NCBI GenBank assembly: GCA_032718865.1
Contig: JALUTQ010000004.1
Coordinates: 2,542,001-2,606,000, forward strand
Length of the DNA stretch: 64,000 bases
From: Tilletia caries
Taxonomy: Eukaryota > Basidiomycota > Exobasidiomycetes > Tilletiales > Tilletiaceae
Reading direction: 5' to 3'
A program made the position numbers and the translations under genes. This document shows, one piece after another, positions 7,643 to 43,315 of the stretch. Position 1 is the first letter of the stretch, and the number at the start of each line of letters is the position of its first letter. The notes beneath the pieces were generated by a model that did no database searches, was not told the origin of the DNA, and saw nothing but the letters and a program-made list of their open reading frames with translations.

Positions 7643-9271
7643 ATGACCATCGCAAGCTCGACCACTATGACGCCAACCGAATTGTCTCCCAGGCCCCCTG
7701 CTATCCGCCGCAAAGCCTGGACCCGGCACGAAGACGACAAACTCTTCCGGGCCGTCGACCAAGAAACCCCTGGAGCGATCAACTGGCACCGCGTCGCCGC
7801 CCGGGTCGGGACCAAGCGTTCGAACAAAGACGTTCGCAAGCGCTGGCTTCGACGAATCGAGAGCTGCCGTATCGCCCGTGGACCCTGGCTTCCGGAGGAA
7901 GATGACCGACTCCGACAGGCCATCGCCGTCAGTGGCCCCAAGTGGGTTCATGTTGCGAACTCGGTAGGAACGCGCAACAGCGAGCGTGAGTGCAACGTCC
8001 TCGTTGGGGAATTGGGCAACCTCATTGCCGAGGTGGTCGAGGCTGACGATGAATGTCAACTTCTGTAATCTTCAGAATGCTCCAAGCGCTGGCACGACGT
8101 TTTGGACCCAAAGATCTGCCGCGATAGCTTCACTCCAGCCGACGATGAGCGACTCCTGCAAGAGGTCAAGAAACAGGGTCGTTCCTGGTCCAAGCTCGCA
8201 AGTCACACCTTCTCAGGCAGGACTGGCATCAGCCTCAAAAACCGGTACGAATATCTGATTCGTCAGCGGGCCCAGGAAGCTGTCAAGCGAGGAGCGATTG
8301 CTGTTGCCGAAACCACACCGGCGGCTCAGGAGAGTCCCGCGCAGCAACAGACACAGCAACAGACACAGCAACAGACACAGCAACAGACACAGCAACAGAC
8401 ACAGGCCGTCTCGGAGCCAATCTCCCCCCCTCCTTATTCCGCGCCGTCTACGTCCGCATCTCCAGCCCTCAGCGACTCAGCCTTTACCTCTTTCGGCTCG
8501 GACTGGAATCGCTCATCATTCGCCTCCACAATCTCCTCCCTCTCGTCTAGTCCTGCTTCATTCGAGTTGAACACTTCCTCGATGTCAACCAGCCCGGCCT
8601 CCTTTCCTCCCCAGGCTCTGCTCAGCCCAGCTGAGCTCGATATGTTTTTCGGGACAGTCCTGATGGATGACACGATGCCGTTCGACGCATCCTCATTTAC
8701 GTTTGCGGCCTCTCAATCTCCTTCTATGCTCAACTTCCAATCTGCATCTCCTGGATCCCTGACATCGAACTCGGTGCCCGGTAGCACAACGCCCGCGACA
8801 CCGACCACCACGATGCCTTCGAGATCGATGGCAGGTCAAGTGCCGATGCTTCCGAATCAGTCTCGTTTCCTATTCCAGGAAAATTCCTTTCAGCACCAAG
8901 AACAACAACAGCAGCAACAACAGCAGCAACAACAGCAGCAACAACAGCAGCAACAGCATCAACAGCAGCAGCATCAGCAACAGCATCAATATCAGTACCA
9001 AACCCTTCTCCTACAACCGCCTTCATGTCCGATGCACACCTCCTCCCCCTCCTCCTCCTCCTCCTCCTCCGTGCCTATAAGCACCGGCACGATGACATCG
9101 GCGCCGATGTCAACTGCACCGGTGGTGGCAACTGCAACGGCGGTAGCATCGGCATCACCCACTATCTTGCCACAGTCTCTCGTACTGGCACCTACTGCGC
9201 CGGGTCAAGCATGGAGCTGCACGTTCGTCAACGGCTTGCCTGAGTTCCGGCTGGTTCCATACGCAAGCTAG
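7643..9271 (+). CDS. R1R2R3 Myb (SANT) DNA-binding regulator, copy 2
   Basis: Predicted nuclear transcription factor of 512 aa, exons 7643-7985 and 8076-9271 with the same intron position as copy 1. The three Myb repeats are nearly identical to copy 1. Copy 1's start codon corresponds here to ATC (7604-7606), so the start must move 13 codons downstream to 7643; this loses only residues outside the Myb repeats. The linker holds a five-fold 12-base repeat (8343-8402) encoding Gln-Gln-Thr-Gln units, the polyglutamine tract is longer than in copy 1, and a stretch of about 35 residues near 9020 is replaced by a serine run (TCC repeats). The C terminus (NGLPEFRLVPYAS) is identical to copy 1. It lies head-on to the intact FMO, the likeliest candidate target. 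Confidence 0.83.
8343..8402 (+). repeat. 12-base coding minisatellite in Myb copy 2
   Basis: The unit CAGCAACAGACA is repeated about five times and encodes Gln-Gln-Thr repeats. Copy 1 has an irregular Gln/Asn/Lys stretch at this place, so the array expanded after the duplication. Confidence 0.85.
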
Positions 9272-9940
9272 CTCGAGAACTTCCATTCGATCATGGCTGG
9301 CTCATACATATAACCCTCCTCCTCGCACTTACGTCGATACCTTCTTCTACCGAACAAAGTTCTCTATAGCCTTTCATTCTCGGCTGGTCCGACTGTATTT
9401 CTCTTCCTTCGTCTTTCGACACTCCTCTCAGGTTTGTTCCTTTGAATTTATGACATCTACTCCTTTTCACGTTTCACTATTGGCGGGCATGTGTCTCTTA
9501 ATGCTGCGCGCTCAGTGAAGTCAAGACAGGTTGCCAGCTGGGCGATCGGGGGCTACGAATGTGTCAAAGTTACGAACATAACTGAATCTACATACGAGCC
9601 AGCTGTGATTTGTTTTTTCACAATTGCTCACTAACTTTGCATTGTTTCACCAAGTGCTTACATACTGAAAACAGACTGAATCTTCGTATTGCCACACGTT
9701 AGAGGGGATACATAACACGTATCTGACACAACCTGAATTCTTTAGCGTCAATACCTCGCAGCTGGGAGCTGGAGGGGGTCGTATTGTGGATCTCATCGTG
9801 AGAAGCGGTCAGGAATGGACATCGGTCGAATAAGTACGAGAGATGATACAAAAAAAGCGTGTCGTCCGAACTGAGGGTCTCCCCGCGGTAGAAAGGAAAG
9901 GTACACAACCCCACTGGAGAGGAGCGGTGGAAGGAGCTGA
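9272..9940. other. Convergent spacer between Myb copy 2 and FMO
   Basis: The two genes point towards each other, so this holds the 3' regions of both. No other gene or clear signal is seen. Confidence 0.5.
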
Positions 9941-12204
9941 TCATGTCGATGCTGCAGGTAGCATGAATGTGGAGAAATACGCCTTCAGGGTGTCCGGACG
10001 GTCAATCGTAGTCGAGGTGCCGACCCAGCTATCCGGCCGGAGGACGACAACACCACCAGAGAGCGGGTCGACGCCGTAGGCGGTGTGCACATCCTCGGGT
10101 GAAAGCGAGTCATCGTAAATGACCTTGACGAGCTTGCTGAGGTGAGGGAATCGGCCCGAGCTTGTAAAGCGCTCCTTCGTCTCGGAGGGCAGACTTCGGA
10201 CGAGAATGACGGGGTTGATGAGAGAGCCATTCTCAGGGAAGACGGCGTTGGGTGTCTTCTCGTGCGAGTAGATCGAGTAGAATGAGTCGCCGCTGGCCAG
10301 ATGGGCCTCCAGCGTGTCCAACTTGCTGAGAATAGCAGGAGTCAGGTAGCCTGCGAACACCAGGGCGTGGAACGCGCCAGGATTTCCCTGGAGAGCGTGG
10401 TAGAGGTAGCCCGTCGTGGTCGGTGTGAGAGCGACGCGTGGGTTTGGCGCTCGAATGCCTGCACGGATGCTGGAGACCTTGGCCGACACGCCAGGAATGT
10501 CGGAGTTGATCTCGTTGGGAACGTAAGGGATGTCGAGACCGATCAGAAGACGGCTGTTGTTCTTGAGGAAGAAGAGAAGGAAGGCATAGTGCTTCTCGGC
10601 ATCGGTCATGTTCTCACGCGGGGGCACAAAGGCTTCGCCATGCTCTTCTTCGATGGTCGTCTTGAAGCCTGTTGTGCCGAACGGATCCATGGTGACGATG
10701 CGGAGGTAGCGCGCCGAGGTCCTGACGAGGCGGTTGGCAATTGTGCGGCGCTCTACATCGTAGGTGGGAAGAACAACATCAGGCTTTGCTGCGCCCCGCA
10801 AGCAGAGACCCAACTTGAAGGATAAGTTGGCGGAGTCCATGATGCCTGCATTGAGACCGAACGCTCCCATGGCACTGTGACAATGGCTGCAAGGGGAGCA
10901 TGTTTATCATGTCAGTGCAGATCTTCGCGCAAGAGTGGTTGTTCCAGAGCACATACCAGGCATCACCAGCAAGGAAAACCCGGTTGTTCTTGCCGCTGAA
11001 AGCATCGGCAACCCTCTCATTAATCTGCCACCCGAGGTGCCAACTTGTAGGTCCGCTGAATCGAATAGTGTAAGGCGAGAAGACCTTGTTGGCGACCTGG
11101 AGGATAAGCTCGGGAGTGATGGAAGCCTTGTCAAAGCCCTTGCCTTGCTCCGGGCGAATTTGGACGTAAAGACGCACGATACCGTTTTCCCGAGGGACGA
11201 CGATGACACCTCCGTGCTCAGAGTGCAGGACGACGCTGCAGATGAAGTGGGCTGATAAGTACAGGGGAATGAATATCTGCGGCGTCGAATGGAGTACTCA
11301 CCCGAACATCCACGCGTGAGGCCAGTCTGAGTCCAAAGGCGCATCAAGGACTCCCCAATATATATCGGCTGTGATACCTGGGAACTCGATGTTCATCTTG
11401 CGCCGAATGGACGAGTGGGCTCCATCGGCCCCGACCAGGTACTTAGCTCGTACTGTCTCCGTTTCGCCCGTCTGGACGTTTGAGAGCTGGCAGGTGACCG
11501 GGTACTCCTCTGAAGCGTCGTCCGACACTTCATAGCTGGTCATGATGACCGGTCGCTCGACCAAAATCCCGTGACGACGCAGGTCGCGGATCCAAATGCG
11601 CTCGATCTGAGGCTGGGTGACCAGGTGGAGGCCCTTGAAGGGAGACTCGGAGAGGTGACTGGACGTGTAAAGCTTGCATTTTCCGTCCATATAAATGGCT
11701 GTATGCTCGATGATGGGCCCGACCTCCGTAAACTCTGATTGCAGACCCCAAAGCTGAGCAATCTCGAGGAATCGAGGCTGCACACCGTTACCGCGCCCAG
11801 CAACAAGAGGCGTCGGCGCTTTGTCTGGAGAGAGACCCAATAAGTCAGCAACCAGCATGGCTTCTGAGTGAATATTTCATGGAGCTTGTTGTTCTCGTGT
11901 CCTACTCACCGATGACGCGTGAGCGGAACCCTTGCCGGGCGAGGCCAGCAGCGACCTCGAGGCCAGTGGGACCGGCGCCCACGACCACGACGTCGATCTT
12001 GCTTTCCTTCTTGTACGAAGATGCGTTCGCATCGCCATTGGTTCCATCGAGAAGTGCAGAGTAGTGGTCTGCGACGAAAGTGCCGAACTCGTTGGGGAGG
12101 GTTGGATGCGGAATGCGTTGCAGGACCATCTCTGCCGGAAGGGTGCTGACATCGCCATGCGTGGCGGGAGCATTATTGTTGTCAGATTGAGGGACAGGTG
12201 CCAT
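9941..12204 (-). CDS. FAD-dependent aromatic-ring monooxygenase (phenol hydroxylase type)
   Basis: Class A flavoprotein monooxygenase of 680 aa; such enzymes hydroxylate phenolic rings using NAD(P)H and O2. Exons (minus strand): 12204-11910, 11824-11302, 11235-10957 and 10886-9941. Seen: the FAD dinucleotide motif GAGPTG at about residues 76-81, the family DG motif GADGAHSS near 230, and the GD motif as GDACHCHS near 363 (assembled across the third intron), followed by GLNAG and a DSANLSFKL stretch. The last exon extends to VVLRPDSWVG near the C terminus, typical of the thioredoxin-like third domain of phenol 2-monooxygenase relatives; the length also fits that group. No signal peptide, so probably cytosolic. 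It is the intact member of a duplicated Myb-FMO pair and a likely tailoring enzyme for the polyketide product. The exact substrate and hydroxylation site are unknown. Confidence 0.88.
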
Positions 12205-13815
12205 TGTTGGGTACTTGGTGGCTCAGTTATGAAGGTCCTGTGTGCCAAAGTGAAGATCTTCTGCTTGGGGAAGCAAGTGTCAGGTAGAAGAGGGTACAGT
12301 GAGAGGCTGATGAGCGAAGAGCGATGAGCCATCAAACGGGTCGCGACTTTTGAAGCATTCGACGAGCCACGCTGATTTAAACAAAATGTATATGAAGCGC
12401 AAGAAGGAGCGTAGTAAGCTCAGAGCTTCCTCTCGGTCCTTACCTGCGTAGCATCAGATATTCCTCTGTTGGTTAGTGCAGAGAACTTCTCCTCGGCGAG
12501 GCGAGGGCGCCCCGCGCCAGCATTGGATAAGCTTGAGCGGATAAGTGAGTTCGAATGCTTGACATGGCGCATTAGTCAGACAGTATGAAGGCGGATAGTT
12601 AAGGGCAGGCTGGTTGCCGTGTAGCAGAAGGTCCTGGATGCTCAATGCGGTGTATGCATGTCCGAGGGCAGATGTCAGGGAATGTGAGTGTGAGTCGTAT
12701 ACTCGTATGGCCGGGCGGAATGAAGCACGGCAACGGACCCAACAGTCCGTCCTCGGTCTCAAGCGTGACCGCGTATGACGATTCAAAGCAGCCTGGGTAT
12801 GTGTGATCCGTACGATCAGTCACGTCTCGGGCGCCGGGTAGATCAGAGGGTCGACAGTAACAAGGCGCTCATCGGCTCATATGACCCGCAGAGTGTGCGC
12901 GGTCGGACCTGTAACCGTTCATTTTCCCCGAGCCGCGTTTCAGTAGGACCTTGACCTCTTGACGAAGAATGACTCAATACTGTATCGTTGGTAGTGTGAG
13001 GGTTCATGTTGAAGCTGAGAAGCGGTGTAGAGATTTCTCCGTCGAGGTCTCCACTCTCCAGTTGGACTGCCCGTTTTCCTGCCGTTCTATCGCTTACATA
13101 ATCGCCCGTTTCGCTTCTCATTTGCTTATCACCGAGCTTCCAGGCTGAACAGCGCTCAGAATTTGTTCAGCGAAGCGACGTCCACGCGTCCACGGTCCAG
13201 GACAAGTCGAGCGAGTCAGGCACTCAGGCTACTGTTAAGGACGAGGATCTGCACTGAATGTCTTTGGTGTCAAGGGATAAGGCTAACCCCAGACGAGCGC
13301 GAACAATTCGCTGATAGCCTGACACGCTGACACACGAGCTGCCGAGTGCTGAACGCTGACCTCGCTCATCCACGAAACCCTCTCAGCCCAGCTCATATTG
13401 ATTCTCTCCACCGAGTACAGGCAGGTTCGATGTTGGGCCGTACTGCGCCGCAGAATCAGCCTCGTTTACTGGTTTGCGCCACCTCAGAGCTCCTAAGCAC
13501 CGACCTCGAATCGTCGATAGGGAAGCTTCATTATAGTGCTGCCTGCTCGCGCTCAACGCTCAAACACAGAAAAGGGCAGACCCACCGAGATTCTGCGCAC
13601 TGATCGGCTTACTTCTCCCCTCCAGGCTTACCTCCGAACATCCTTCTCTCAATCACACAGCGATCGTATAAAAAGCCATGTCCATCTTCTGGTTTCTGCG
13701 CAGAAAGGACACCAAAGCCTCACCCGCTGCACCCGCTCAAACCTCTACGCCTCAGTCTTCAGCTACTACCAGCAACACTACGCCACCCACCTCTGCACCA
13801 ACTACATCTACCAGT
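12205..13815. other. Divergent promoter region between FMO and SDR
   Basis: About 1.6 kb between two genes transcribed away from each other. No supported gene. It should carry both promoters; the clear element is the TATA box at 13667-13673. Confidence 0.5.
13667..13673 (+). promoter_or_regulatory. TATA box of the short-chain dehydrogenase gene
   Basis: TATAAAA lies only about 11 bases before an in-frame ATG at 13678. Transcription should start near 13700, so that ATG is probably not in the mRNA and the next in-frame ATG, at 13816, is the likely start. Confidence 0.6.
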
Positions 13816-14858
13816 ATGATCTCCAGCAAGATTATTGTCATCACCGGCGCTGCCCGTGGCATCGGCTTCGAGCTTGCCCGTCAACTTGTGAGTGCTTTCC
13901 CTCCTCTCACACTTCCTCAAGGGAGCTCTTGCTGAGTGATGTAACATTCTGTTCCCGATTTACCAGTCCACCTCGAACACAGTTTTTGCTGTCGTTCGCA
14001 CACCTGCCAGCGCAGACAAGCTCAACTCACTGGCTCAGACCCAATCGAACCTCCAGGTCGTCGAAGGTGACATCACTGACCTCGCCTCCATCAAGAAGAG
14101 TGTCGAAGCGGTCAGCGCAAAGTCTGATGGCAAGATCGACATCCTCATTAACAACGCAGGCATTAACGTCGGCGAGCAGATGGGTCTGTGCGTATATTGA
14201 TACTGTTGTGCGATGAGAGACTCGTCTTCAGCAGCGACGAAGGCACTGACAGTTATTTTTTCTTCGACAGTGTTAACGTCGACCCCCAGGACCTCAACAC
14301 TCAGCTCACCGCAAACGTCACCGGCCCTGTCCAGACGACCACTGCTTTCCTTCCCCTGCTCAAAGCTGGCAGCACCAAGACCATTGCCTTCATCGGTTCT
14401 CGCCAAGGCTCTCTCTCTCTCGCCACGAAGACGGATGATCCAGCCGCTTTCATGGGTTCGTTCAGACATACAGTTCCTCGATGACAACGCCACAATGCTG
14501 ACCTTGTAATCTGTTGCACTTTTCGCAGGATCATACTCGGTTGCCAAGGCTGCTTTGAACATGGCCGTCCGCAAGCTCGCCAACGAGCTCAACTCAAATG
14601 AGAAAGCCTCCTTCTCCGTCCTTTCGCTTCACCCTGGCTGGTGAGTTTAAGTTTTGGGCATGACACCTCGTCCGTGACAGAATGCAGCTCTGACTTGTGG
14701 CATCTCTTTACAGGGTCGCGACCGACATGGGTGGTGCTCAGGCTCCTCTCACCGCCGAGGACTCCGCCAAGGGTCTCATCTCCGTCCTCGAGAAGCGCAG
14801 TGTTCCCGCCGAGACCGGCAAGTTTTACGGCTATGACGGCTCTGAGATTGCCTGGTGA
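13816..14858 (+). CDS. Short-chain dehydrogenase/reductase (sniffer-like)
   Basis: NAD(P)-dependent oxidoreductase of 244 aa in five exons: 13816-13887, 13967-14187, 14271-14455, 14529-14640 and 14714-14858. Seen: the cofactor motif TGAARGIG near the N terminus, NNAG near residue 98, a serine-containing FIGSRQGS strand, and the catalytic YSVAK with tyrosine and lysine spaced as in classical SDRs, followed by AALNM. The Tyr motif is assembled across intron 3. Overall shape resembles the C-factor/sniffer subgroup of carbonyl reductases. An in-frame ATG at 13678 would add 46 Ser/Thr/Pro-rich residues, but it lies too close to the TATA box. Neighbours are tailoring enzymes, so reduction or oxidation of a pathway intermediate is likely; the substrate is unknown. 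Confidence 0.87.
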
Positions 14859-15563: not shown

Positions 15564-17091
15564 TCACACGCAGCGAACCTCGACGAGACCAATCACACTG
15601 CGGCACAGCCAGAAGCGCTCGACCCTGAGACCCGCGGCCTCGACGAGCGCCTCGAACTCGGCAGGCGTGCGCTCTATGCCATTGAGCAAGGCGCACATGT
15701 TGATGTCGCGCTCGTGCGAGAATCGAGCCGGCGCTCCAAAGTTGGCGGGGAGTGGCTCGGGTGCGCGGGATTCCTTGGGGAGCAGGTCGGACCCGTATGC
15801 GGTGACCATGATCTGGTCGGCGATCAGAAGGCGCGCGTCAGGTCTGCCCTCGAGAGCGGGCTTGAGGTTCTTGAGAATGTCGATGCCTGTCCAAGAGAAG
15901 AAGAATTGGGATGAGCTTGAGTTCTCTTGCATGATGGAAAGGCGAAAGCTGTGTAAAGTACTCACAGAAACTGTCGGACCAGTCGTGGGCAATGTACCTG
16001 ATCCAGTAAACGTCAGCGTCCAGGATGGGTTGTGGCTTGAAGAAGTCGTGAGGCATGAACTGAATTCGGTTCTGCTCAACAAACTGAGGGTATTGTGCGG
16101 ACCAGATCTTCATGGCTTGTCCGATGACCTCAGGGCGATCTTGGAGGGTGAAGCTGAGATTAGGGAAGACGCTGGCAAGAGCCATGCACATGGCGCCGAC
16201 TCCGCCACCAACATCGACGACCTTGGCATTACCGAGCTCGGCCCAGGGGAAGTCGGCGAGTGTACCAGGCACAACGACGCGTCCAGCACCAAGCATGGCC
16301 AAGCCGAAGCGCTCGAGCTGCTCGCGAGGCTTGCCATTCTCGTCCTTCTCCTCGAGCCACTCCCAGCGGGGCTTGGGGCCGTATACGTCGGAGAAAGCCG
16401 CGTCGAGGATGTCGTAGGAGTGACCCTTGACGGGGTCGTCGAGGTTGAACATGAGGGCATCTGCCGCTCGGTATGGCTCCTCTCCGTAGTGGTAGAGGTA
16501 CGCGCGCAGAGGCTCGTTCTTGACGAGCGCTTGAGAGATCCGGTTGTTGGTCCATGTGTCGGGTCCGATCTCTTTGAAGCAGTGAATTGTAGCAAGGAGG
16601 CGCATGATGCGGGCCAACTTGCCCTTTTCGAGACCTGTAGCCTTTCCGAGCTCTTCCTTGGTCATGCCCTTGGGGCCAGCCGCGTCAAGGAGGTCCGAGA
16701 TACGGAGCTTGGCAGCGATGTGCAGTGCACGGGCCTCGAAGTACTACAGATGTTCAAGCAACGCGTCAATGAAGGATTTTTGACGCGCCTTCAGGCTTCA
16801 GGTGCGCACGAGCACACTCACCTCGCCAGCGAGCTCGAGAAGACGTTCTCCGGGATCCTGGACAAGCTCAGGAATCATTCCTGACGCGCCAAGGAGAGTG
16901 TTGATGGCGCGATGGGCGATGGGAGATGGTAGGGCGGCAAGACGCTGGACCTCGGGCAGGTTGCTGTGGGCAAGGCCCTTGTTCACCGGCTTCTTGCTGT
17001 CTGCGTCCCACTCTGCGAGAAGAGTTTGAGACGAGGTGTTGATGAGCTCAACGAGCTGGCGCAGCTGCTGGGAGCGATCTGTGGTAGTCAT
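15564..17091 (-). CDS. SAM-dependent O-methyltransferase
   Basis: Methylates a hydroxyl, probably phenolic, using S-adenosylmethionine. 456 aa in three exons (minus strand): 17091-16822, 16743-15966 and 15886-15564. The N-terminal half is a winged-helix dimerisation domain (helical stretch beginning YFEARALHIAAKL, then MTKEELGKATGLEKGKL). The catalytic half has the SAM motif VVDVGGGVGAM, a later DADVYWIRY strand and AHDWSD carrying the family catalytic histidine, then LLIADQIM. This is the fungal/plant-type multi-domain O-methyltransferase (pfam00891). An upstream in-frame ATG at 17265 lies before a TTAAAAG element (17228-17235) and would add a low-quality leader, so 17091 is preferred. It shares a roughly 1.1-kb divergent upstream region with the aldo/keto reductase, consistent with co-regulation. 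Confidence 0.9.
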
Positions 17092-26500: not shown

Positions 26501-27112
26501 AGCTCCAGCCTGGAGTCTTTGAACTCCGCTTCTCAGGCGATGCAGCTCAGCTCCAACACATACATGGCTCTTGCCCCCATGGGACCCCCGACGTCAACAC
26601 TCCCGTCGCCCACAAACTCGGGGACTCACATTTCTGCCCCCATGAACTCCATGGCTCCTCTTTCTTCCATTCCAATGCCGGCCGGAGGATCGACGTATGC
26701 GCCGCCCATGTCGAACACCGTCATGACTGTCAACAACTTGATCAGCAGCGACGGTGTCGGAGGCAGCACGAACATCACCCATCCCAACATGGCGGCGGCC
26801 ACTTTTACTTCGGTACCTCTCAACCTGTCCAGCGCCGGTGGCAGCGGCGACGGTCCCTCGCTGGCTCAAATGGGCCTCGGCTTTTTTGATACGCTTTTCG
26901 ACGCCAGAAATCAATTTGCCCCGCTGGACCCGACGGCCTTGGCTCCGCAGGCGGACGGGACTGCAATGGCTGCTACTGTCCCGCTCCCTGCTAGCTCGGG
27001 CGGTAGCAGCGGTCCTATGCCCCCAGCTGAGGCTGTCGTGGCTAGCCTGGGTTTGGAGGCCTACATGAATTCCTGGCTGACAGCGATTCAAAACGATGGG
27101 CAAGCAGCTTAA
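23555..27112 (+). CDS. Zn2Cys6 transcription factor (probable cluster regulator)
   Basis: Nuclear regulator of 1159 aa in two exons, 23555-25329 and 25408-27112. The Zn2Cys6 binuclear cluster has cysteines at residues 83, 86, 93, 99, 102 and 111 (CLKCHQRRVKCDRKQPC then TAC), preceded by a basic KTPRRRNRAV stretch. A fungal-specific middle homology region follows from about residue 300 (DVLTRFISEYEGHLGSG, then LDILVGSYLNDVDWMYQ, and LSLLGGMILG) into exon 2 (FAALFFGKRPSFP, a typical MHR motif). Ser/Gly/Met-rich disordered segments lie between and after. It stands inside the set of biosynthetic genes, upstream of the P450 and synthase, so pathway-specific activation is the natural inference; CGG-type binding sites in the cluster promoters were not searched systematically. 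The repeat-rich region at 27.3-27.9 kb begins just after its stop codon. Confidence 0.9.
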
Positions 27113-27329
27113 AGCCGAGGGATGCCTCGGCGGAAGGGATTGGAGCCCTGTGCTAGTGGGGGTGTTATCAGGGCCGCTCGCTGCTCGGCCTTAGCTGCTA
27201 AGCGAAGCCTTCGACAAGAATTTATTGGTCTATCTTGTTCGCCTCTTCTCGCCTACCCTACACCGCCGTCGTACATTGAGGGTCGAGTGTTTCCCACAAA
27301 ATTGAACGTCACTTGTTTGTCCGAATTGT

Positions 27330-27885: not shown

Positions 27886-28276
27886 TATTACGGCGGTGTA
27901 CATACATAGACTTTCGATCTCTTCCCTTACCGCCCACCATCACCACTCTTACCCAGGGTTTTCTTCGCCTCACTTTCTGTAAATGTGGTTCGTCCCTATC
28001 AGCATCTTCCGTCGCAACTTGTACTACTCTTGGCTTTCCGAATCGTTACACCCGAAATCATGCAGAAGTGAAGTCAGTAACGTAGGATGAGGGGACGTGT
28101 GCTGGCTCAAGGGACAATGAACGCACCGGTGCGCTTGCCTTCCTCAGTCTAGCTGAAGGTGCGGTAGATACGAGATGACAACTGAATTCTGGATGCCTTG
28201 TCATCCTACTGTACAGCGAGCGGAACGCAAAACAAGACGTGACATGGGTCAACGAGCGGATGAAGGGTCTTGACGC

Positions 28277-31949: not shown

Positions 31950-34900
31950 ATGACTGCGACCAAAACGAATTCAACAACAGGACAGCAGCAGCAACAGCCC
32001 ATCGATGCCGGCTTCCTGCCCATCTTCGCTGGTCAAGGTACATCCGGATTCGATGTCCCTCTCCACAAGCTTGCACCACCGTCAAGTCTGGCCGAGGTTT
32101 GCCTCAAAGAGCTCCACAGCACTGTTGTCGATTGCTTCAAGTCTCTCTCAGCTCAACAGCTCAACAAGCTTCAACTCGCTCGGGACCATTTTGACCGGCC
32201 CGAAACCCTTCTAGGAACGCAAGGTAGCCGAATTCTCTCTCCGTCTTCGGCCCTTGCTGCCAGTCTTCGGACTACGGCCTTCCAGCTCGTACTCTACCTT
32301 GCCAAGGTGGAGTCCGCACAAGTTTCGTTCGAGGATCATCTGGGACCCGCGACCAAAACAATCGGCGTCCTCGGATTCAGCTCTGGCTTGATCTCTGCCA
32401 CCGTCGTTGCCTCATCTCGAACAACGCTCGATTACCTTACTAACAGCGTTGCAGCCATCAAAGTAGCCTTCTGGCTTGGTCTTCGTGCCGACCTGTTCAA
32501 GCGTGACGCTGTTGCAGCTATCGGTGACAAGACCGATCAGCAGTATGCCGAGGCGTCGTGGTCGACCGTCGTTCTCAACGCGGATGAGGTTGCGTTGCAG
32601 CATGAGCTTGACCATTTCGCTGTATGTTACACCTAACTTTCCACGCTATAGTTTCCCGGGAATAGTTTATTGACGCTAACTTCCCTTTGTCCTTTTGGCG
32701 CCGTCTGTAGCAGGCTCAGCACGGTTCCCTTGCACCTCGTATCACCGCCAACCTAGGACCGGATAGCTTCACTGTCTCGGGTCGACCAGATCTCCTCGCC
32801 AAGTTCTCGAAGAGCGTCTCAAGTCATGGCTGGAGCTGTTTCACCCCAACGGTCTTGAGTCTCTACCATGGTGGCGAGGATACGAAGTCAGTACACGACG
32901 CCATCCTGCAAGACCTCAAGGACAACGGTGTCGTATTTCCTGCTCTCAACACCCTAAAGTTGCCAATCTGCTCAACCAAGGAAGTGAAGCCGATTCAGAC
33001 CGGCAGTCAAGACTCGGAGTTCCTTCATGATCTGATTTCTCTCATCGTTACCGACCCTACCGACTGGGCTGGCATCTCAGCTCGTCTCGCCAACCTCGAT
33101 GAAGTTCGCATGCTCAACATCGGTCCCGGTGCAGGCCTCTTCCGGCCCCTCACCAGCAGCGTCCCAGGCGATCACGTCGACGGTTTATCGTACATCCAAG
33201 ACAACTTCGTTCGTGCATCCGTGCACGATCGGCCTTCGCCTTGTGACATCGCCATCACCGGCATGAACTTCAAGTTGCCCGGTGCTGGAGATATGGAGAC
33301 GTTCTGGGCCAATCTCACAGCCGGCCTTAACATGTGCTCCCCTATCCCAGGATCCCGCTTCAACGTTCAAGAGTTCCCGTGCAAGACGAACAATTCAAAC
33401 ATGCACGCTTCGACCGGCAACTTCATTGACGCGCCCGATTCTTTCGACAACGCCTTCTTCAACATCTCCAGCCGTGAGGCCAAATCGATGGATCCCCAGC
33501 AGCGACTGCTGCTACAGGCTGCCTGGCTTGCACTTGAAGATGCCGGCTACGTTCCCAATGTCACGCCTTCTTTCAACCCAGCGAAGATGGGCGTATACGT
33601 TGGTGTGGCGACCAACGATTATGAGCGCAATTTGTCAGACAGTATTGACGTTTATTACTCCACTGGTGAGTATATCAGATCTACGATACTAAAACATTCC
33701 CGCGGCTGATCAATACTTCGGTCGTATGTTCTGTTATCAGGCACTCTTAGAGCTTTCCTCAGCGGCCGTATCAGTCACGCACTGAAGCTCAGTGGACCCT
33801 CAATCGTACTCGACACTGCCTGCTCCGGCTCACTAACGGCCTTTCACCTGGCGTGCCAGGCAATCACGACGGGTGAATGCACTTCCGTCATTGCCGGTGG
33901 TGTCAACGTCATCTCCAGCCCAGAGATGTTTGTCGGCCTTGATCGTGCTCACTTTCTGAGCCCGACCGGACAGGTGTGTACAATTTAACCTGTTCTTGTC
34001 CAAGCCAACAGCACTGACTAAACAATCTATGCGAAATCGTTTCCTTCAACCCATAGTGCAAACCGTGGGATGCCGACGCCGATGGCTACAGCCGTGCCGA
34101 AGGTGTGGCATGCTTCGTCCTCAAGCCTCTCCACGCCGCTATTCGTGAAAATGACAGCATCTACGGTGTGATCCGGGCGACTGGACTCAACCAGAACGGC
34201 AATTCGAAGAGCATCACTCAGCCGCATGCTGATACACAGGCGGTCTTGCTCCGCTCACTGCTTGTCAAGTCTGGCATCGATAAGGAGCAGATCAGCTACG
34301 TCGAAGCCCATGGAACGGGAACACAGACGGGCGATCCCATGGAGATGACTTCCATCCGTAGTGTCGTTGGCAGGAACGACTCGGCCAACAAATTCCACGT
34401 CGGTTCTGTGAAGGCAGTCGTCGGTCACGCAGAGGCCGCCTCTGGCAGTGCAGGTCTGGCCAAGATCCTTGCCATGCTGCATCACAGAACGATCCCGAAG
34501 CAGCCGCTGCTGAACAAGCTCAACCCCAAGGTTGATCCGCTCGAGGTCGATGGATGCAACATCGCTCTCGACAATATCGCTTGGGAGCTTGGTCCCGGAC
34601 AGCCCACTCGAGTTGCACTGCTGAACAACTTTGGTGCAGCAGGTGCCAACGGTGCCCTCATCATCTCCGAAGCGCCCACTCCTAGTCGCACCATACTGCA
34701 ATCTAGGGCCTCGAAGCGCAACTCTTGGATGCTTGCGGTCAGTGGCAAGACCGAGTCCGCTCTCGAAGCTGCTCGTCAGGGACTGGTTCAGGCCCTCAAG
34801 AAGCGTGACGATATCACCCTCGGCGATCTCAGCTACACCTTGATGGCCCGGCGTCCTCACTATAGCCACCGGCTGGCTGTCATTGCGGACAACAAAGAGG

Positions 34901-37900
34901 ACGCAATTGTCAAACTCGGCGGTGCCCGTGTCTCCAAGGCAACGCAGTCCGACATGCGCTGCCTTGCGCTCTTCTCCGGACAAGGATCGCAGCATCAAGG
35001 GATGGGCCGAGAACTGCTTTATATCCCTGCGTTCGCAGCGACTGTGCAGCGTTGCAAAACGATCCTCAAAGCAAACGGGGCGAAGGCCACTCTGTCCTGG
35101 CTATCTTCCGAGCAAAGCGAGAACGAGTTCGGAGAGAACCTCGTCGATGCTATCGTTGATATGCAGTGCAGCATCTTCGTCCTCGACTTGGCCTTGTACT
35201 GGCTTTTCCGCCAGTGGGGCGTTGAGGCACACGTTCTCGGCGGACATAGTCTCGGCGAGTACGTGGCCCTCACCGTTGCCGGTGTGCTCTCTCTTGAGGA
35301 CGCCCTCTTCCTGGTCGTAGAGCGCGCCCGTCTCATGGCCACCTTGTGCCCTCGCGACACCACGGGCATGATTGCTGTCAGCCTCGGAGTCGACGAGGTC
35401 GAGGAAGTGCTGAGCCGCAACCCCGCCTGGGATCTCTCACCAGCGTGCATCAACAGTCACAGCGATACTGTCCTCTCCGGGCCAATCGAGAACCTTCATG
35501 AACTCAAGTCCTTCCTCGATCAGAATACGAAGGTCAGGTCAACTGTCCTCAGTGTTCCCTTTGGCTATCACTCGAAGGCCATGGCTCCGATCAAGGATGA
35601 CTTCTTGCAGGCCGGCGCAAAGGTCCAATTCAACGCTCCGTCAATTCCAATCATCTCCAACGTCCATGGCCGGGTCGTCCAACCTGGGGAGTCGGGTGTG
35701 TTTGATATCAAATACCTCTACCGCCACATCGAAGAGCCGGTCAAGTTCTGCCCAGGTCTGGAAGATGCCTTTGCCAGCTTCGCTCCTACGATTTGCCTCG
35801 ACTTTGGTGCTCATCCAGCATGCTTGCCCATGGCCACTGCCGTGTGGTCCAGCAGCAACAGTGACGGTTCCAAGACTTCGATACCTTCCCTGAAGCCGGC
35901 CTTCTTGTCCACGTTGAAGAAGAAGCTCAGCTCATGGGCTGCTTTGCTGCCGACGCTGGAGACGCTCTACGCCTCGGATGTTGACCTCAACTGGAATAAC
36001 TTCTTTGCCGGCGAGCAAGTTCGCTGCCTCAACCGTCTGCCATCCTATGCTTTCGCGGACACGCGGTACTGGGTCGACTACACCTCCAAGGGGCCGACTG
36101 CAGCCGGAAAGGAAACGGCTCTTCAATCTGATGCTGCATCGAGTGGAACTGGCTACATCATGCTTGACGAGTGTGTGGAGCTTCCAACGACCCGCGACGG
36201 CGGACAGGCCATCTTCACGACTCCCGTCGAGCAGCTCGAAGTCTTCATCTCCGGTCACGCTGTCGGTGGCCAGCCTCTTTGCCCTGCCTCCGTCTACCAC
36301 GAGCTTGCCCTCGCTGCCATCCAGTACACCACCGAGAACGCCGACTGCGCGAAGGTTCTAGGCGATAAGGTCTTCAGGCTCGGTCAAGTCGAGTATCAAC
36401 GCCCATTTGTGCTGACAGATGCTACTCGTGGTAACACGTTCAAGACCATCTTGACCTTGTCTGCCAAGGGCGACCAGGACGCAGTCTTCGAAGTCCACTC
36501 GCAAGGCGCTAAGGAATCAACATGCCACTGCCGAGGTACTATCGGGGAAAAGGACGCTACTGAAATGGCATCTCGCCTTCAGCGTAGCAGCCGCTTTATG
36601 CTGGAACAGCTTCGCCGTCTGCGCAATGGAAGCGGCGAGAGCGAAACCTTCAAGACGAAGACGATCTACGAACGCATTTTCCCTCGAGTAGTCCGATACT
36701 CCAGTCCATACTGGTCGATTCAGTCGATGAGCATGAGCCTATCAGGCAAGGAGGCTGTGGCGCGCGTCAAGCTACCTGCGAAAGACAATGCAGCAAAGGG
36801 CAAGTTCGTTGTCGAGCCTCGCTTCATGGATACCATCCTCCATGCGACGGGGTTCCTGATCAATTCTCAAGCACCGGACGACATCGCTTACATCTGCTCC
36901 AAGACCGACAAGGTCAAGATCCTTTACCGCGATAGCATCGACGGTAAGACGCAGACTCTCCAGGAGCTCGAGGAATGTGACATCTTCTGTGTCATAGAAT
37001 CACTGAAGGAGGAAGGTGTCGAGCTTGGCACCGCCTACGTCGAGCAAAACGGTCGGATCGTGGCAACCCTTACCGGCATGCACTTCAAGGCGATCCCTCT
37101 TCCCCGGCTTCACATGCTTCTCGGCGCTGCCAACGTTTCTCGAGCAGCTTTGCCCAGTCAGCAGACCTCCGCGGCAGTCCCCCCTAGTGCTGGTGCTACC
37201 AAGATGCCAACGAAGACGACGTGCCTGAAGAAGCCTAATGACCCGTTGGCCGACAGTACCTCCGAGGTCGCTGATCGCTTGCGCCAGCTTATCTCAGACA
37301 CCTGCGGAACCCCAATGGCCGAGGTGCAAGATTCCGTGGAGACTGCCTCGCTCGGCATCGACTCTCTGATGGTCATCGAGCTCGTAGCCAAGGTCAGCCA
37401 GGAATGGCCCTCGGTCCGTCTGGAGTTCAGCGACTTCCTCGACGCGAAGGTGTCTGACATTACTCGGTTGATCACCGGTCAGCTCCCTGAGGTTGAGGAG
37501 GAACCTCCTTCTCGCCCACGAATGGACAGCGTATCTCGCACGGTATCGTTCAAGCAGGCTTTGGACGCCTTCGCCATCGAGACGGTTGGCGTCGAGGATC
37601 GCCTGCGCACGCTGATTTCAGAGACCTGCGGAGCGCCAGTCTCGCAGATTCAGAACAGCACCGAGACAGCTGCTCTCGGTATTGACTCGCTCATGGTCAT
37701 TGAGCTGGTCACCAAGATTTCGCAGGAGTGGCCATCGGTGATACTCGAATTCACGGACTTCCTCGACGCTCACGTTGGAGACATCATCGACCTCGTGAAG
37801 AATCAGCTCTCCCCGGAAGTCGACACCGCCTCCGAAAGCCAACCGGATGATGTCTTCTCGGAGAGCTCCCAAGATTACCTCGACACTCCTCTGGAGACGC

Positions 37901-38759
37901 CGTGCTATACACCTCGCCAAAGCGTCTCGTCGACAAATCTGGAGAAGATCAACGAAGAAGCGTCCAAGCACAACGTCGTCGCTGATCCGGCACTGATCCA
38001 GCGAGCCCCGGCCGGCCGGTCGGTCGAAGCGCCTCTTTTCCTGATTCACGATGGATCTGGGTGCTGGGCACCTTACACCCGGCTTGGGTCCCTCCAGCGT
38101 GAAGTCTGGGCCTTCTCCAACCCTCGCGACGACCCTTGGCCCCACGGACTGCCCGAGATGGCCGCTTGCTACGCATCTCAGATCCTCAAGCTGGGCAATG
38201 GCAAGCCTGTGGTCGTCGGTGGTTGGTCCTTCGGAGGTGTGGTTGCCTTCGAGGTTGCTCGACAGCTCATGAAAAATGGTCAAGAGGTGAAGGCGTGCAT
38301 CATGATCGACTCTCCGTACCCGATTGGTCATCAAGGCCTCAGCAACTCGGTCATCGAGTCGATTGCGCCGGCGCCGTCGAAGGGCAGGATGAACATCCAG
38401 AGGCAGTTCGAGATGAACACCCGCGCCTTAGTCGCCTACGGCCAGACCTTGGACGACAAGTTGCCTCAAGCTCCTGGTCTCCAGATCATTTACCTCAGGT
38501 CAAGCATGGGCTTTGACTGCAACCTCTCTTGGCTCCGGGATCGTGACGAACCCTCGGTCGCCAACGTCGAGGACTGGCGACCGCTCGTCGGACCCGATGC
38601 GAAGCTCAGCCAATACGCCATCCCGGGCAATCATTTTGAAGCGCTGGACAGCACACATGTAAGCTCTTCGCCTTTTGCACTGCTCAAGTCCAACAGTTGC
38701 TGACCTCTTCCTTTGCGTCACAGGCTGCTATTGTTACTGAACAGCTCCGCCAGGCATAG
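31950..38759 (+). CDS. Non-reducing polyketide synthase (SAT-KS-AT-PT-ACP-ACP-TE)
   Basis: Iterative type I synthase of 2165 aa making an aromatic polyketide from malonyl-CoA. Exons: 31950-32621, 32711-33665, 33741-33973, 34057-38658 and 38724-38759. Starter-unit acyltransferase (SAT) at about 20-300, with GFSSG at 142-146 where cysteine is usual in the middle. Ketosynthase (KS) at about 400-815: Cys570 in DTACSGS, His705 in EAHGTGT, His744 in VGHAEA. Malonyl transferase (AT): GHSLGE with Ser1018. Product template (PT): His1354 (SGHAVGG) and Asp1545 ([11 protein letters not shown]). Two carrier domains (ACP) with GIDSLM serines 1723 and 1831. Thioesterase (TE) with GGWSFGG, Ser2011. No reducing or C-methylation domain. 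Architecture and size match basidiomycete orsellinic-acid-type synthases, but ring size is not provable here. Intron 1 ends in a TAGCAG tandem acceptor; using 32714 would drop one Gln. Confidence 0.95.
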
Positions 38760-39115: not shown

Positions 39116-39198
39116 TGCCGGTGGGCGGAATCGAACCGCCGTTTCATCGGTACATTGCAATCCACAACGATACGTACTAACCACTATACGACACCGAC
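39116..39198 (-). tRNA. tRNA-His(GTG) with an 11-nt intron
   Basis: The minus strand folds as a full cloverleaf. The acceptor strands GTCGGTG and CACCGGC pair (one G-U), with discriminator A. The D arm is GTATAGTGGTTAGTAC, and the anticodon stem TATCG/CGATG closes a TTGTGGC loop with anticodon GTG. The T arm has GGCGG TTCGATT CCGCC. An 11-nt intron (ATTGCAATGTA) sits at the canonical position one base after the anticodon. Minus-strand T runs follow immediately. The mature form is 72 nt before the His-specific extra G. Confidence 0.9.
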
Positions 39199-39971: not shown

Positions 39972-42900
39972 ATGCCGACCGCCAACGTCAACTTCATCCG
40001 ACCGGAATTCGAGCTGCCCCCCGGTCGTGGATCCTACACCCACCAAGGCGGTATCCGAACGCTATACGACCTCCTCCAGACCAGCGCAGTCAAGAACCCG
40101 GATCACATCTTCTGCCACCAGTTCCTGCCCGGCCCGCAGACGAAACGGAAGGTGAGCCACTCGCAGCTGCTGGGTGCGGTCGATGGATGTGTTGCGGATC
40201 TTGTGCGGCGGGGCCTCGCTAGGCGGTCGGAGAAGATCTCGGACTCGGAGGTCGTGAGGGGTTCACCGGTCGCTCTGCTCTTGGGGAGTGACATATCGAT
40301 CTTCATCTACATCCTCGCCTTGACCAAGATCGGTAACCCGGTGAGTAATTGGTATTGAGAGGCGCGAGGACTCCCTCTGCTGACAGGCTATATTTTGATA
40401 CATATTTCAGTTCATCTTGGTCTCCACTCGTCTCTCACCCGAAGCCGTCCGTCACTTGCTCAAGGCAACCAACGCGCGGATAGTTCTCACCACGGAGAAC
40501 CTGTGGCAAACCCTTGTCGTCGGTGACGACGGAGAGCCAACATCGACAGAGTACGCCGCATCCCAGTCGATCGTCGAGCTCCTCGACGCGGCCTCTGAGA
40601 ACCCCGCTCCAGCAGTGGAAAAGGGAGACGATATCGACCACAACGACTGCTCGGTGGCCATCTTCCACTCGTCAGGAAGTACCGGTCTCCCCAAGCCGAT
40701 CTACCACTGCCACCGATACCTCCTCGGATACGCTGCCAATCACCGGCTCCCCGCGACGGTATGTGGTATGACGAACGTCTCCACCTTACCGCTCTATCAC
40801 GGTTTTGGCCTTCTTGCGCCCTGTCTCTCGCTCTCGATAGGGCTGGCCTTTGCGCTGCCTCACGCGGCGCAGGTTCCTACGGCATCAAGCACCCTGGCTA
40901 TGTTGGACGCCGTACCCGCGAAGATCATCTTCACGGTTCCCTCCATCCTGGAAGACATCCTTGTGCAGTATGGCGAAGTCGGGCTGAAGCGGCTTGCTGC
41001 CTTGGAAATTGTCGTCTCCGGTGGCGCTCCCCTGAAGGACGGTCCCGGTCAACGTCTGATCGACGCAGGAGTCAACGTCTTAAACCACTTCGGCGCGACT
41101 GAATTTGGCGCTTTTGCTCCCATATGCTACGCGCCCGACGGATACGACTGGAAGTTCCTCCTCCTCCGGATCGACGTCCCGCTCCGCATCGAGGGGACGC
41201 AGCTTAAACAGCTCGCCATGCGGCCGTTCGGATGGGAGAGGGACTTCGTTGTGCAGGACGAGCTCGAGGTTGCGAGCACGAGGGATGGACAGGTCCAAGT
41301 TCGCATCAAGGGACGCGTGGACGACGTCGTTGTGCTGGCGACAGGCGAGAAGGTGAACCCAATCGTCCTCGAGAACGACCTCCGACAGCATCCGCTCGTC
41401 AACGAGGCGCTGGTATACGGAGCCGGTCGATTCCAAGCTGGCGTCATCATCGAGGTCATCGACACCGTTGAGGTGGACGAGATCCCCAAGTTCGAGGACG
41501 AGCTCTGGCTCGCTGTGGATGCGGCGAATCAGAAGATGGACTCGCATGCCCGGGTGGAAAGACCGCTGGTCATCGTGACCAGCCGCAAAATCAAGCCGCT
41601 CCCTCGTACCGTCAAGGGCAACCCCCAGCGCCGCGAGAGCCAGGACGTCTTCGCCGACGAGATCTCAGCCGCCTTCGAGCGTCTCGAGAAGGAACAGGCT
41701 ACATCCTTTCCGGAATTATCCCATGCCGATCCTGCCAAACTGAAGGATGAGCTCCGATCGCTTGTGCGCACGTACCTGCCCCGAATCAAAAAGACGGTCC
41801 GGAGTTTTGCGGACACGGAGGACTTCTTTGAGCTTGGGATGGACTCGTTCCGGGCGTTACGGCTGACGCGGGCTCTGACGCCTACTCATCTCGCTGCGAA
41901 AGGCTCGGCGCCACGGCCTGAACTGATCTATGCCAACCCGACGTTGGACAGTCTCACCGCGGCCCTTTCTTCAAATGCGGACGTCGTCCGTTCAGCTGCG
42001 TCCGCGATGCGTCCTGCTGAATTCGCCCAGCAGGCCATTGACGAGCTTCGGCTGCGCTTGAAAGAACGACCAGCGCCATCCGTACGTTCGACGATCCCGA
42101 ATGGCAACGGTAACAGCAGCAACGGCATCACCGTCTTGCTGACAGGATCGACGGGAAGCCTGGGTGCCCATCTCGTCCATGCCCTCCTGACGGACAAGCA
42201 TCAGCCGCCGATCGCGCGTGTGGTTTGCCTGAACCGGCCCAGCGGGACGGGCACGAGCAGTAAAGAGCGCCAACAGGCAGCCTTCAGCCAGCACAGCCTC
42301 GTCCTAGATGACCCAGCCTGGTCACGAATTCTCTTCTTCGAGCCATCCACCTCTACGTCGTCGGACCGATTGGGTCTGGGTCAGGACGCGTACGACGAGC
42401 TCGTCTCCTCTGTCGATTTGATCATCCATAACGCCTGGCCGATGGACTTCCACCGTCCGTTGTCCTCCTTTAAGACGCACCTCGATACCACGGCCCGACT
42501 GATTGAGCTCAGCGTGGACCATTGGCGCGCGACGTCCAGAGCGATGAAAGTCGTCTTCTGCTCGTCCATCGCCGTCGTCGCTCGTCGGCGCGGGCAGATC
42601 CTTGAAGAGGTCATGTCCACGGACGACTGTATGGCTCCCATGGGGTATGCGGAGGCGAAGTGGTGCTGCGAGACGATGTTGTTGCGTGCGCGTGATGAGG
42701 TTTGCCCGGGGGCTTTGGTGCCGGCTGTTGTGAGGATTGGACAGTTGACGGGGGCGGAGGGGAGTGGGACGTGGTCTGCGCAGGAGCATATTGCTGCTAT
42801 TGTGCGGTCGTCGGTGGTGATTGGGCGGTTGCCTGAGCTTTCGGGGGTGAGTTCCCTCACCATCTTTGTTTTGATGGGCAGTGAGTTGCTGACCTCTCCT

Positions 42901-43315
42901 CCCCCTCTCCCGCTCCTCCTCGCAGACCCTCTCCTGGATCCCAGTAAACCGAGCCGCCAAAGCCCTAATCGAACTCGCCCTGCACTCCAACCCCTCCACC
43001 CCCATCCTCCACCTCGAGAACCCAACCCGGCAGTCCTGGGCCGAGATGATATCAATCCTAACCTCCAAGCTCGGCTTGGATCCACCGACGTCTTGGACGG
43101 AGTGGCTCGCGTCTGTCAAGAGCAATGGGGAACTTCCGGCGAGCAAGGTCGTTGGGTTTTTGGAGAAAGATTTTGAGGCGTTGGGGACGGGGGAGGTGGT
43201 GCTCGATACGGGGGTTGCGCGTGGGTTGTCGGTGACGTTGAATGGGTCTGGTGCTGTGGGTGAGGGGCATGTGAGGGAGTATCTGGGGTATTGGCGGAGG
43301 GTGGGTGCTCTTTGA
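39972..43315 (+). CDS. NRPS-like carboxylic acid reductase (A-T-R)
   Basis: Activates a carboxylic acid with ATP, loads it on a phosphopantetheine arm and reduces it to an aldehyde with NADPH. 1064 aa in three exons: 39972-40340, 40411-42846 and 42926-43315, the usual length for fungal A-T-R enzymes. The adenylation domain has the ATP-binding loop FHSSGSTGLPKP at 208-219, then LYHGFGLLA, NHFGATEFG and a KGRVDDVVV stretch. The carrier domain has FELGMDSFRAL with Ser602. The reductase domain has the NADPH-binding TGSTGSLG at 701-708 and the catalytic tyrosine and lysine in YAEAK (869-873). No condensation domain. Directly downstream of the synthase on the same strand, it is well placed to reduce the aryl acid released by the thioesterase; that substrate is inference. 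The last exon is very G-rich, unlike the earlier exons. Confidence 0.93.

What the first reader, a model, noticed from the sequence alone, without database searches (positions are those of the whole stretch)
7643..43315. A probably uncharacterised aromatic polyketide gene cluster
A non-reducing synthase, an A-T-R carboxylic acid reductase, an FMO, a P450, an O-methyltransferase, an SDR, an aldo/keto reductase and two regulator types lie together over about 36 kb with no recognisable housekeeping protein gene between them. All enzymes keep their catalytic motifs. I do not recognise this exact gene set as a described pathway. The product should be an oxygenated, O-methylated aromatic, probably passing through an aryl aldehyde.
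Basis: partly seen in the sequence, partly recalled or inferred. Interest (0 to 1): 0.85.

Follow-up and report, generated by a model that had tools for sequence, protein, structure and literature searches.

The report
Wheat-bunt aryl-aldehyde polyketide gene cluster
A stretch of a wheat-bunt fungus genome holds a conserved set of genes that probably makes a small oxygenated, methylated aromatic aldehyde, built much like the set that a corn-smut fungus uses to make an unusual dark pigment.

Summary
The cluster is real. The genome is a wheat-bunt Tilletia (PKS and FMO 100%, CAR 99% identical to T. laevis/T. controversa proteins). In T. maclaganii FMO, PKS and CAR bear tags 003549, 003557 and 003558 on one contig. 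A 2022 paper had already predicted a T1PKS/NRPS-like cluster in these species, without a product. The set has a parallel: the Ustilago maydis orsellinaldehyde melanin cluster (NR-PKSs, A-T-R reductase, P450, omt1, pmo1, Myb regulator); the second PKS and a GMC enzyme are missing here. 'All enzymes keep their catalytic motifs' is wrong: the FMO, closest among solved structures to ring-expanding VibO, has Asn where 34 of 35 fungal relatives compared have the catalytic Asp. A second intact Myb gene and an FMO fragment lie just outside (604-3136). Most likely: orsellinic acid to orsellinaldehyde, then hydroxylation and O-methylation, perhaps a spore-pigment precursor. New variant of a known kind.

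The parts
678..2307 (+).
   Evidence: blastn 604-1982 vs 7593-9018 90.5% and 2093-2324 vs 9057-9287 92.2%; open frame; Pfam Myb, three stretches (first 201 aa); dN/dS to MYB 0.26 over 489 codons (own script)
2967..3136 (-). Fragment of a duplicated FMO gene (relic; described only)
   Evidence: 86.5% identical to 10916-11085; protein-level match 80% over FMO residues 324-367
7643..9271 (+). MYB: three-repeat Myb transcription factor (exons 7643-7985, 8076-9271; 512 aa)
   Evidence: Pfam Myb_DNA-binding 3.6e-29, three stretches
9941..12204 (-). FMO: phenol-hydroxylase-type FAD monooxygenase, VibO clade (4 exons, 680 aa), Asn111 in place of the catalytic Asp
   Evidence: FAD_binding_3, Phe_hydrox_dim; VibO 7YJ0 E 2e-169; 46.6% to VibO; residue table; T. 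maclaganii V8E36_003549 84%
13678..14858 (+). SDR: short-chain dehydrogenase (5 exons, 290 aa; start codon and first 46 residues read by eye)
   Evidence: Pfam adh_short 5.3e-32; exons; YSVAK motif read directly
15564..17091 (-). OMT: O-methyltransferase (3 exons, 456 aa), nearest solved relative GedA
   Evidence: Methyltransf_2 1.3e-24; 7WH9 GedA E 9e-118; SAM motif, HDWSD
18185..19573 (+). AKR: aldo/keto reductase (5 exons, 357 aa)
   Evidence: (6.3e-49)
20154..21828 (-). TrAA12/soluble-quinoprotein-like protein with a signal-peptide-like start (4 exons, 477 aa); membership in the pathway uncertain
   Evidence: TrAA12 8.5e-22; 6I1Q E 2.6e-22
23555..27112 (+). Zn2Cys6 transcription factor (2 exons, 1159 aa)
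   Evidence: Zn_clus 1.7e-6, Fungal_trans 2.3e-7
28277..30325 (-). P450 (5 exons, 586 aa) with heme, ExxR and I-helix motifs
   Evidence: (2.4e-79)
31950..38759 (+). NR-PKS SAT-KS-AT-PT-ACP-ACP-TE (5 exons, 2165 aa), no methyltransferase domain found
   Evidence: catalytic columns; P0001 100%, T. maclaganii V8E36_003557 76%
39116..39198 (-). tRNA-Thr gene inside the cluster (not a pathway part)
39972..43315 (+). CAR: A-T-R carboxylic acid reductase (exons 39972-40340, 40411-42846, 42926-43315; 1064 aa)
   Evidence: catalytic columns; T. controversa 99%, T. maclaganii V8E36_003558 68%

Best explanation
A conserved, probably functional biosynthetic cluster of wheat-bunt Tilletia. The NR-PKS makes a one-ring acid, most likely orsellinic acid, released by its TE. 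The neighbouring A-T-R enzyme activates it with ATP and reduces it with NADPH to orsellinaldehyde. The VibO-clade flavoenzyme and the P450 add oxygen, the GedA-like enzyme O-methylates a phenol, and SDR/AKR adjust the oxidation level. One or two Myb regulators and a Zn2Cys6 regulator switch the set on. By analogy with U. maydis, where a Myb-type regulator (Mtf1) drives an orsellinic-acid and orsellinaldehyde pigment cluster, the product may be a dark-pigment precursor of the teliospore. Shown here: gene classes, domain order, intact PKS/CAR catalytic residues, synteny tags in T. maclaganii. Inferred: substrate, reaction order, regulation, biological role.
For: Domain order and catalytic columns of PKS and CAR. 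Beyond Tilletia the best-scoring PKS relatives are Agaricomycete NR-PKSs at 35-38%; PMC5635595 (passages) places basidiomycete and Fusarium orsellinic-acid synthases in one ancestral clade. NR-PKS and CAR recur together: 8 of the 17 other species present in both typed lists have the two on contigs of equal length, with no cross-species coincidence. CARs paired with NR-PKSs, including U. maydis Pks5, reduce orsellinic-type acids (PMC9605436, parts 1-3 of 5; PMC10064546 passages). U. maydis Mtf1 is Myb-related and its targets include pks3, pks4, pks5, omt1, pmo1, cyp4 and vbs1 (PMC10532341 passages). A three-repeat Myb domain also follows the TE in the Westerdykella PKS model P0040, which shares a contig length with a CAR. 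Tags 003549/003557/003558 in T. maclaganii.
Against: No expression, product or mutant data. PMC5635595 puts Ustilago/Sporisorium NR-PKSs in a different clade (gamma), so the PKS is probably not the same gene. The second PKS and a GMC enzyme (Vbs1) are missing from the window. FMO Asn111 could mean weak or altered activity. No shared promoter motif stood out. In 9 of 17 shared species no PKS hit and CAR hit share a contig length, and in Amanita inopinata, which does, the tags are 80 apart. No PKS row named T. indica, T. walkeri or T. horrida is among the 120 listed, although those species also make dark spores (recalled).
Confidence: 0.6

Rival explanations
1. Same chemistry, different role: the product is a diffusible aryl aldehyde or quinone-type metabolite (as in the azasperpyranone half-cluster: NR-PKS, CAR, FMO, P450) acting on microbes or host, not a pigment.
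For: Azasperpyranone BGC A has the same four enzyme classes in the same logic (PMC8948627 passages). Relatives of the FMO sit on a contig of the same length as a CAR relative in 6 of the 7 named non-Tilletia species found in both typed lists, all ascomycetes.
Against: ATEG_03629 with 03630 gives a C-methylated aldehyde; no MT domain was found in the Tilletia PKS. No transporter family was found among the ten genes.
Confidence: 0.27
2. The FMO ring-expands the aryl ring to an oxepinone, as VibO does in vibralactone biosynthesis, so the product is not a simple aromatic.
For: VibO is the closest solved relative (46.6% over 618 columns), and VibO residues R97, L155, F265, R287, Y289 and A366 are kept. 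Vibralactone biosynthesis also uses a CAR (PMC10257657 passages).
Against: Asp99, needed for the oxepinone in VibO (D99N lost it and kept 10% activity for the hydroxylated product; section 8), is Asn in all three Tilletia FMOs; A157, I279 and V459 also differ. No prenyltransferase family was found among the ten genes.
Confidence: 0.1
3. The PKS makes a longer chain (naphthopyrone or tetrahydroxynaphthalene type, as for DHN melanin).
For: The ACP-ACP-TE order also occurs in such synthases (recalled).
Against: The best-scoring relatives are in an Agaricomycete group, and a published tree ties basidiomycete members of its oldest clade to orsellinic acid (passages); an adjacent CAR needs a free acid, which a Claisen-type release would not give (established knowledge).
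Confidence: 0.12
4. Two neighbouring sets: P450-PKS-CAR is the pathway, and the left genes (FMO to TrAA12) are unrelated.
For: TrAA12 and AKR are generic enzymes; the typed FMO list shared only two species with the PKS list, and in Mycena maculata the two are not on a contig of equal length.
Against: FMO and CAR recur together in ascomycetes; in T. maclaganii seven tags lie between FMO and PKS against six genes here.
Confidence: 0.1

Closest known systems
Ustilago maydis chromosome-12 melanin cluster (pks3, pks4, pks5, cyp4, vbs1, omt1, pmo1, mtf1, mtf2, aox1, deh1, orfs)
   Same: NR-PKS plus A-T-R reductase giving orsellinaldehyde, P450, genes named omt1 and pmo1, Myb-type main regulator
   Different: One PKS instead of two; no GMC enzyme in the window; two Myb genes and a Zn2Cys6 regulator; PKS relatives are Agaricomycete, while a published tree puts Ustilago PKSs in another clade
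Azasperpyranone BGC A of Aspergillus terreus (ATEG_03629, 03630, 03631, 03635)
   Same: NR-PKS, CAR, FMO and P450 acting on an orsellinic-type aldehyde
   Different: C-methylated product there; no MT domain found in the Tilletia PKS; O-methyltransferase and Myb regulators here
VibO and BvCAR of the vibralactone pathway
   Same: FMO 46.6% identical to VibO with most pocket residues; a CAR acts in the same pathway
   Different: Asp99 is Asn; no prenyltransferase found; substrate there is a 4-hydroxybenzoate derivative
Basidiomycete orsellinic-acid synthases (ArmB, HerA, Coprinus pks1)
   Same: SAT-KS-AT-PT-ACP-TE architecture, as stated for ArmB
   Different: Long separate branch in a tree of listed hits (1.21 changes per column); sequences of the characterised enzymes were not available to compare

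Membership tests
Fungal NR-PKS (aromatic) | SAT, KS, AT, PT, ACP domains with catalytic residues, no reductive domains | tested here: met
   (PT is seen through the dehydratase-like Pfam models and its His and Asp columns); SAT nucleophile is Ser, as in 45 of 59 rows
Orsellinic-acid synthase clade | Groups with characterised orsellinic-acid synthases | tested here: inconclusive
   Beside 37 Agaricomycete rows in a midpoint-rooted tree, but no characterised sequence could be included
Fungal carboxylic acid reductase (A-T-R) | A, T and R domains with A3 motif, T Ser and R Tyr/Lys | tested here: met
CAR clade VI (orsellinic-acid reductases) | Phylogenetic place with AtCAR, StbB, Pks5 | not testable with these tools
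   Reference sequences not held; P0196 (A. terreus) did not match the published AtCAR residue numbers
U. maydis orsellinaldehyde melanin cluster | Myb-type cluster regulator | tested here: met
   (family level; orthology to Mtf1 not tested)
U. maydis orsellinaldehyde melanin cluster | NR-PKS and A-T-R reductase in one cluster | tested here: met
U. maydis orsellinaldehyde melanin cluster | Two cooperating PKSs (Pks3 and Pks4) | tested here: not met
   One NR-PKS found in the genome
U. maydis orsellinaldehyde melanin cluster | Vbs1, a versicolorin B synthase (GMC family, recalled) | tested here: not met
   0 of 27 listed GMC_oxred_C matches fall in the window (counts are lower bounds)
U. maydis orsellinaldehyde melanin cluster | Orthology of P450, OMT and FMO to Cyp4, Omt1 and Pmo1 | not testable with these tools
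   No protein named U. maydis among the rows listed for the FMO; P450 and OMT were not searched in the large database
VibO-type oxepinone-forming FMO | Phenol-hydroxylase-type protein with VibO pocket residues | tested here: inconclusive
   R97, L155, F265, R287, Y289, A366 kept; A157, I279 and V459 changed
VibO-type oxepinone-forming FMO | Catalytic Asp99 | tested here: not met
   Asn in 3 of 3 Tilletia proteins; Asp in 16 of 16 close and 18 of 19 distant fungal relatives used
Azasperpyranone-type cluster | C-methylating NR-PKS | tested here: not met
   No methyltransferase domain found in the PKS

The most novel reading that the evidence does not exclude
A Myb-regulated module of NR-PKS, CAR and VibO-clade flavoenzyme recurs across Ascomycota and Basidiomycota. 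In Tilletia the flavoenzyme's catalytic Asp has been fixed as Asn, which redirects an ancestral ring-opening or hydroxylating enzyme to new chemistry, and the module makes a teliospore pigment that arose independently of the U. maydis pathway.
Probability: 0.2. Interest if true: 0.7.

Novelty: new variant of a known kind. Interest (0 to 1): 0.45.

Why it matters
What colours the spores of wheat bunt, and what its single detected NR-PKS makes, was not described in the papers I searched. A named gene set with a clear predicted first product (orsellinaldehyde) and a Myb switch makes that testable. The fixed Asp-to-Asn change in a VibO-clade flavoenzyme is a natural version of a mutation already studied in VibO, and so a lead on how this family chooses between hydroxylation and ring expansion.

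Tried and rejected
Rejected: transfer of the FMO gene from ascomycetes. The homolog list alone suggested it, but VibO, a mushroom enzyme not named in the 120 rows listed, is closer (46.6%), and with it in the tree the Tilletia rows, VibO and a 16-row ascomycete group meet in an open fork. Rejected: SAT Ser as decay; relatives share it. Inconclusive: shared promoter motifs; k-mer and dyad scans of six promoter regions gave nothing convincing. Inconclusive: the CAR specificity residue; published AtCAR numbering did not fit P0196. Set aside: a DHN-type longer chain as main reading (no direct test). Literature searches that led nowhere: flavipin with NRPS-like (0 papers), phenol 2-monooxygenase with CAR (2 papers listed, nothing on this set in the listing), Pks5/Pmo1/Omt1/Cyp4 (only papers already seen). 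The original U. maydis paper is not held, so its content is taken from PMC10098057 (section 14 and passages), PMC10532341 (passages), PMC9605436 (parts 1-3) and PMC10064546 (passages). PMC13208730 and PMC8951962 (passages) gave background only; PMC13208730 reports that cluster as found only in U. maydis 521 among 16 Ustilaginaceae. Gene-finder settings that were too loose gave false introns and were replaced by hand curation.
Full report
Source and observation. The window is C4:2542001-2606000 of a 38.1-Mb genome in 40 contigs. The PKS is 100% identical over its whole length to a protein deposited for Tilletia laevis (P0001), the FMO 100% to one of T. controversa (P0241), and the CAR 99% to one of T. 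controversa (P0121), so the genome belongs to the wheat-bunt group. I built gene models with a home-made finder, then curated splice sites by hand. Pfam confirmed all classes. One gene in it was overlooked: a TrAA12-like protein with a signal-peptide-like start at 20154-21828.

Order. MYB (+), FMO (-), SDR (+), OMT (-), AKR (+), TrAA12-like (-), Zn2Cys6 (+), P450 (-), NR-PKS (+), CAR (+). FMO/SDR, OMT/AKR, TrAA12/Zn2Cys6 and P450/PKS are divergent pairs. A tRNA-Thr lies between PKS and CAR. On the left, the next gene assigned to a conserved family is Yju2; on the right, Vps55 and a Not4-like RING gene. GC is 52-57% from 1 to 40 kb and 57-66% from 46 to 64 kb; the two left flanking stretches have 58-59%.

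Synteny. In T. maclaganii the FMO, PKS and CAR are V8E36_003549, 003557 and 003558, on a contig of 1987825 bases (84%, 76% and 68% identity). Seven tags lie between FMO and PKS where my window has six genes. I did not see those seven proteins, and I take the tags to follow gene order. No PKS row named T. indica, T. walkeri or T. horrida is among the 120 listed of 2129 hits; a member at 90% identity or more inside cluster P0001 cannot be excluded, since only one or two names per cluster are shown. The CAR rows listed for T. indica and T. walkeri are a distant form (37%) on its own long branch. PMC6194002 (passages) reports three PKS clusters in T. horrida, so absence there is not shown.

Wider linkage. 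The homology tables give the contig length of each hit. Leaving out Tilletia and unnamed rows, PKS and CAR lie on contigs of equal length in 8 of 17 shared species, FMO and CAR in 6 of 7; no two different species share a length. T. controversa CAR and FMO lie on short, different contigs (4803 and 62530 bases) and were not counted. Equal length very probably means the same contig, not neighbouring genes: numbers are 5 apart in Xylaria acuta and 8 apart in Thermocarpiscus (database ids that need not follow gene order), but 80 apart in Amanita inopinata. PKS and FMO shared only two species: T. maclaganii (linked) and Mycena maculata (not linked).

PKS. The catalytic positions checked in KS, AT, PT, both ACPs and TE are present. 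The SAT motif is GFSSG; Ser stands there in 45 of 59 rows and Cys in 12. No C-methyltransferase domain was found. The two ACPs are 72% identical to each other here and 69% in T. maclaganii, against a median of 33% in the 43 rows that could be measured. In the tree of 60 rows the Tilletia proteins form a long branch (1.21) beside 37 Agaricomycete rows (midpoint root, quick method). PMC5635595 (passages) puts basidiomycete and Fusarium orsellinic-acid synthases in one ancestral clade and Ustilago/Sporisorium synthases in another. Orsellinic acid is therefore the best guess, not a demonstrated product. Only one NR-PKS was found in the genome: KS, SAT and AT families all match here and at a locus on C35 that I take for fatty acid synthase; other matches are partial KS hits on C5 and AT hits on C33 and elsewhere on C4.

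CAR. The A3 motif, T-domain Ser and R-domain Tyr and Lys are kept. CARs next to NR-PKSs reduce orsellinic-type acids to aldehydes; U. maydis Pks5 is one of them (PMC9605436 parts 1-3; PMC10064546 passages). Whether the Tilletia CAR belongs to that clade could not be tested. In the CAR tree it groups with Acaromyces, one unnamed row and the T. indica/T. walkeri form (7 rows, SH-aLRT 100).

FMO. The closest solved structure is VibO (7YJ0, E 2e-169), ahead of phenol hydroxylases. Identity to VibO is 46.6% over 618 columns; to the 16 closest listed ascomycete relatives 38-43%. VibO R97, L155, F265, R287, Y289 and A366 are kept; A157, I279 and V459 are changed; and D99 is Asn111 in the window, in T. 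controversa and in T. maclaganii. Asp is present in 16 of 16 close and 18 of 19 distant fungal relatives used; bacterial and unnamed rows were left out. In VibO, D99N abolished the oxepinone and kept 10% activity for the hydroxylated product, and D54N of phenol hydroxylase lowered hydroxylation about five-fold (PMC10257657 section 8). The conservation of the protein (84% to T. maclaganii, above PKS and CAR) argues against decay.

Other enzymes. The OMT is closest to GedA among solved structures (7WH9, E 9e-118). The P450 keeps its motifs and has no informative solved relative. The AKR matches perakine reductase (E 2e-26) and has Asn at the Asp position of that alignment. The SDR matches short-chain dehydrogenases that include carbonyl reductases.

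Regulators. MYB and MYB2 both have three Myb repeats and open frames; between them dN/dS is 0.26 over 489 codons, which suggests that constraint continued after duplication. The duplicated block also carries an FMO fragment at 2967-3136. The U. maydis melanin-cluster regulator Mtf1 is described as Myb-related, with pks3, pks4, pks5, vbs1, orf4, omt1, pmo1 and cyp4 as targets (PMC10532341 passages). In Westerdykella ornata the predicted PKS P0040, on a contig of the same length as a CAR, ends in a three-repeat Myb domain 40.5% identical over 158 residues, probably two neighbouring genes annotated as one. That identity is no higher than to another Myb gene of this genome (41%), so it shows linkage, not special kinship.

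What is known. PMC9172201 (passages and section 22) predicted nine clusters in T. caries, T. controversa and T. laevis, one of them a T1PKS/NRPS-like hybrid found only partly in most isolates. It is very probably this one, since I found one NR-PKS. The parts I read assign it no product. U. maydis makes orsellinic acid with Pks3/Pks4, reduces it with Pks5, and turns it with a pyranone into an unusual melanin (PMC10098057 section 14). The cluster here works like that one in its first steps on present evidence; it is not shown to be the same cluster, and two of that cluster's features (second PKS, Vbs1-type enzyme) were tested and not met. A metabolomics review that mentions Tilletia and orsellinic acid does so in separate passages (PMC9654507).

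Conclusion. A real, conserved, previously predicted but apparently uncharacterised cluster.

Noticed in passing
window 604-3136 against 7593-11085: Degraded tandem duplication: a second Myb gene with an open frame and a fragment of the FMO gene.
   Followed up: yes
window 27300-27905: Repetitive element (about 0.6 kb) between the Zn2Cys6 and P450 genes, with a stretch that looks by eye like part of a tRNA; ten further matches in the genome, nine of them at 92-99% identity. Possibly SINE-like.
   Followed up: partly
G000:C25:1079045-1080750: Fragments of a second CAR gene, 59-69% identical to a T. walkeri CAR (P0153) with most of the protein unmatched: it looks like a remnant here of the CAR form listed for T. 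indica and T. walkeri.
   Followed up: partly
window about 45524-46240, minus strand: Small protein with a signal-peptide-like start between CAR and Vps55; its first 74 residues have no Pfam match.
   Followed up: no
PKS, the two ACP domains (about residues 1690-1870): The two ACPs are 72% identical to each other (69% in T. maclaganii; median 33% of 43 rows), suggesting recent duplication or conversion in Tilletia.
   Followed up: partly
P0040 (Westerdykella ornata): Predicted NR-PKS with a C-terminal three-repeat Myb domain; probably a PKS gene and a neighbouring regulator gene annotated as one.
   Followed up: partly
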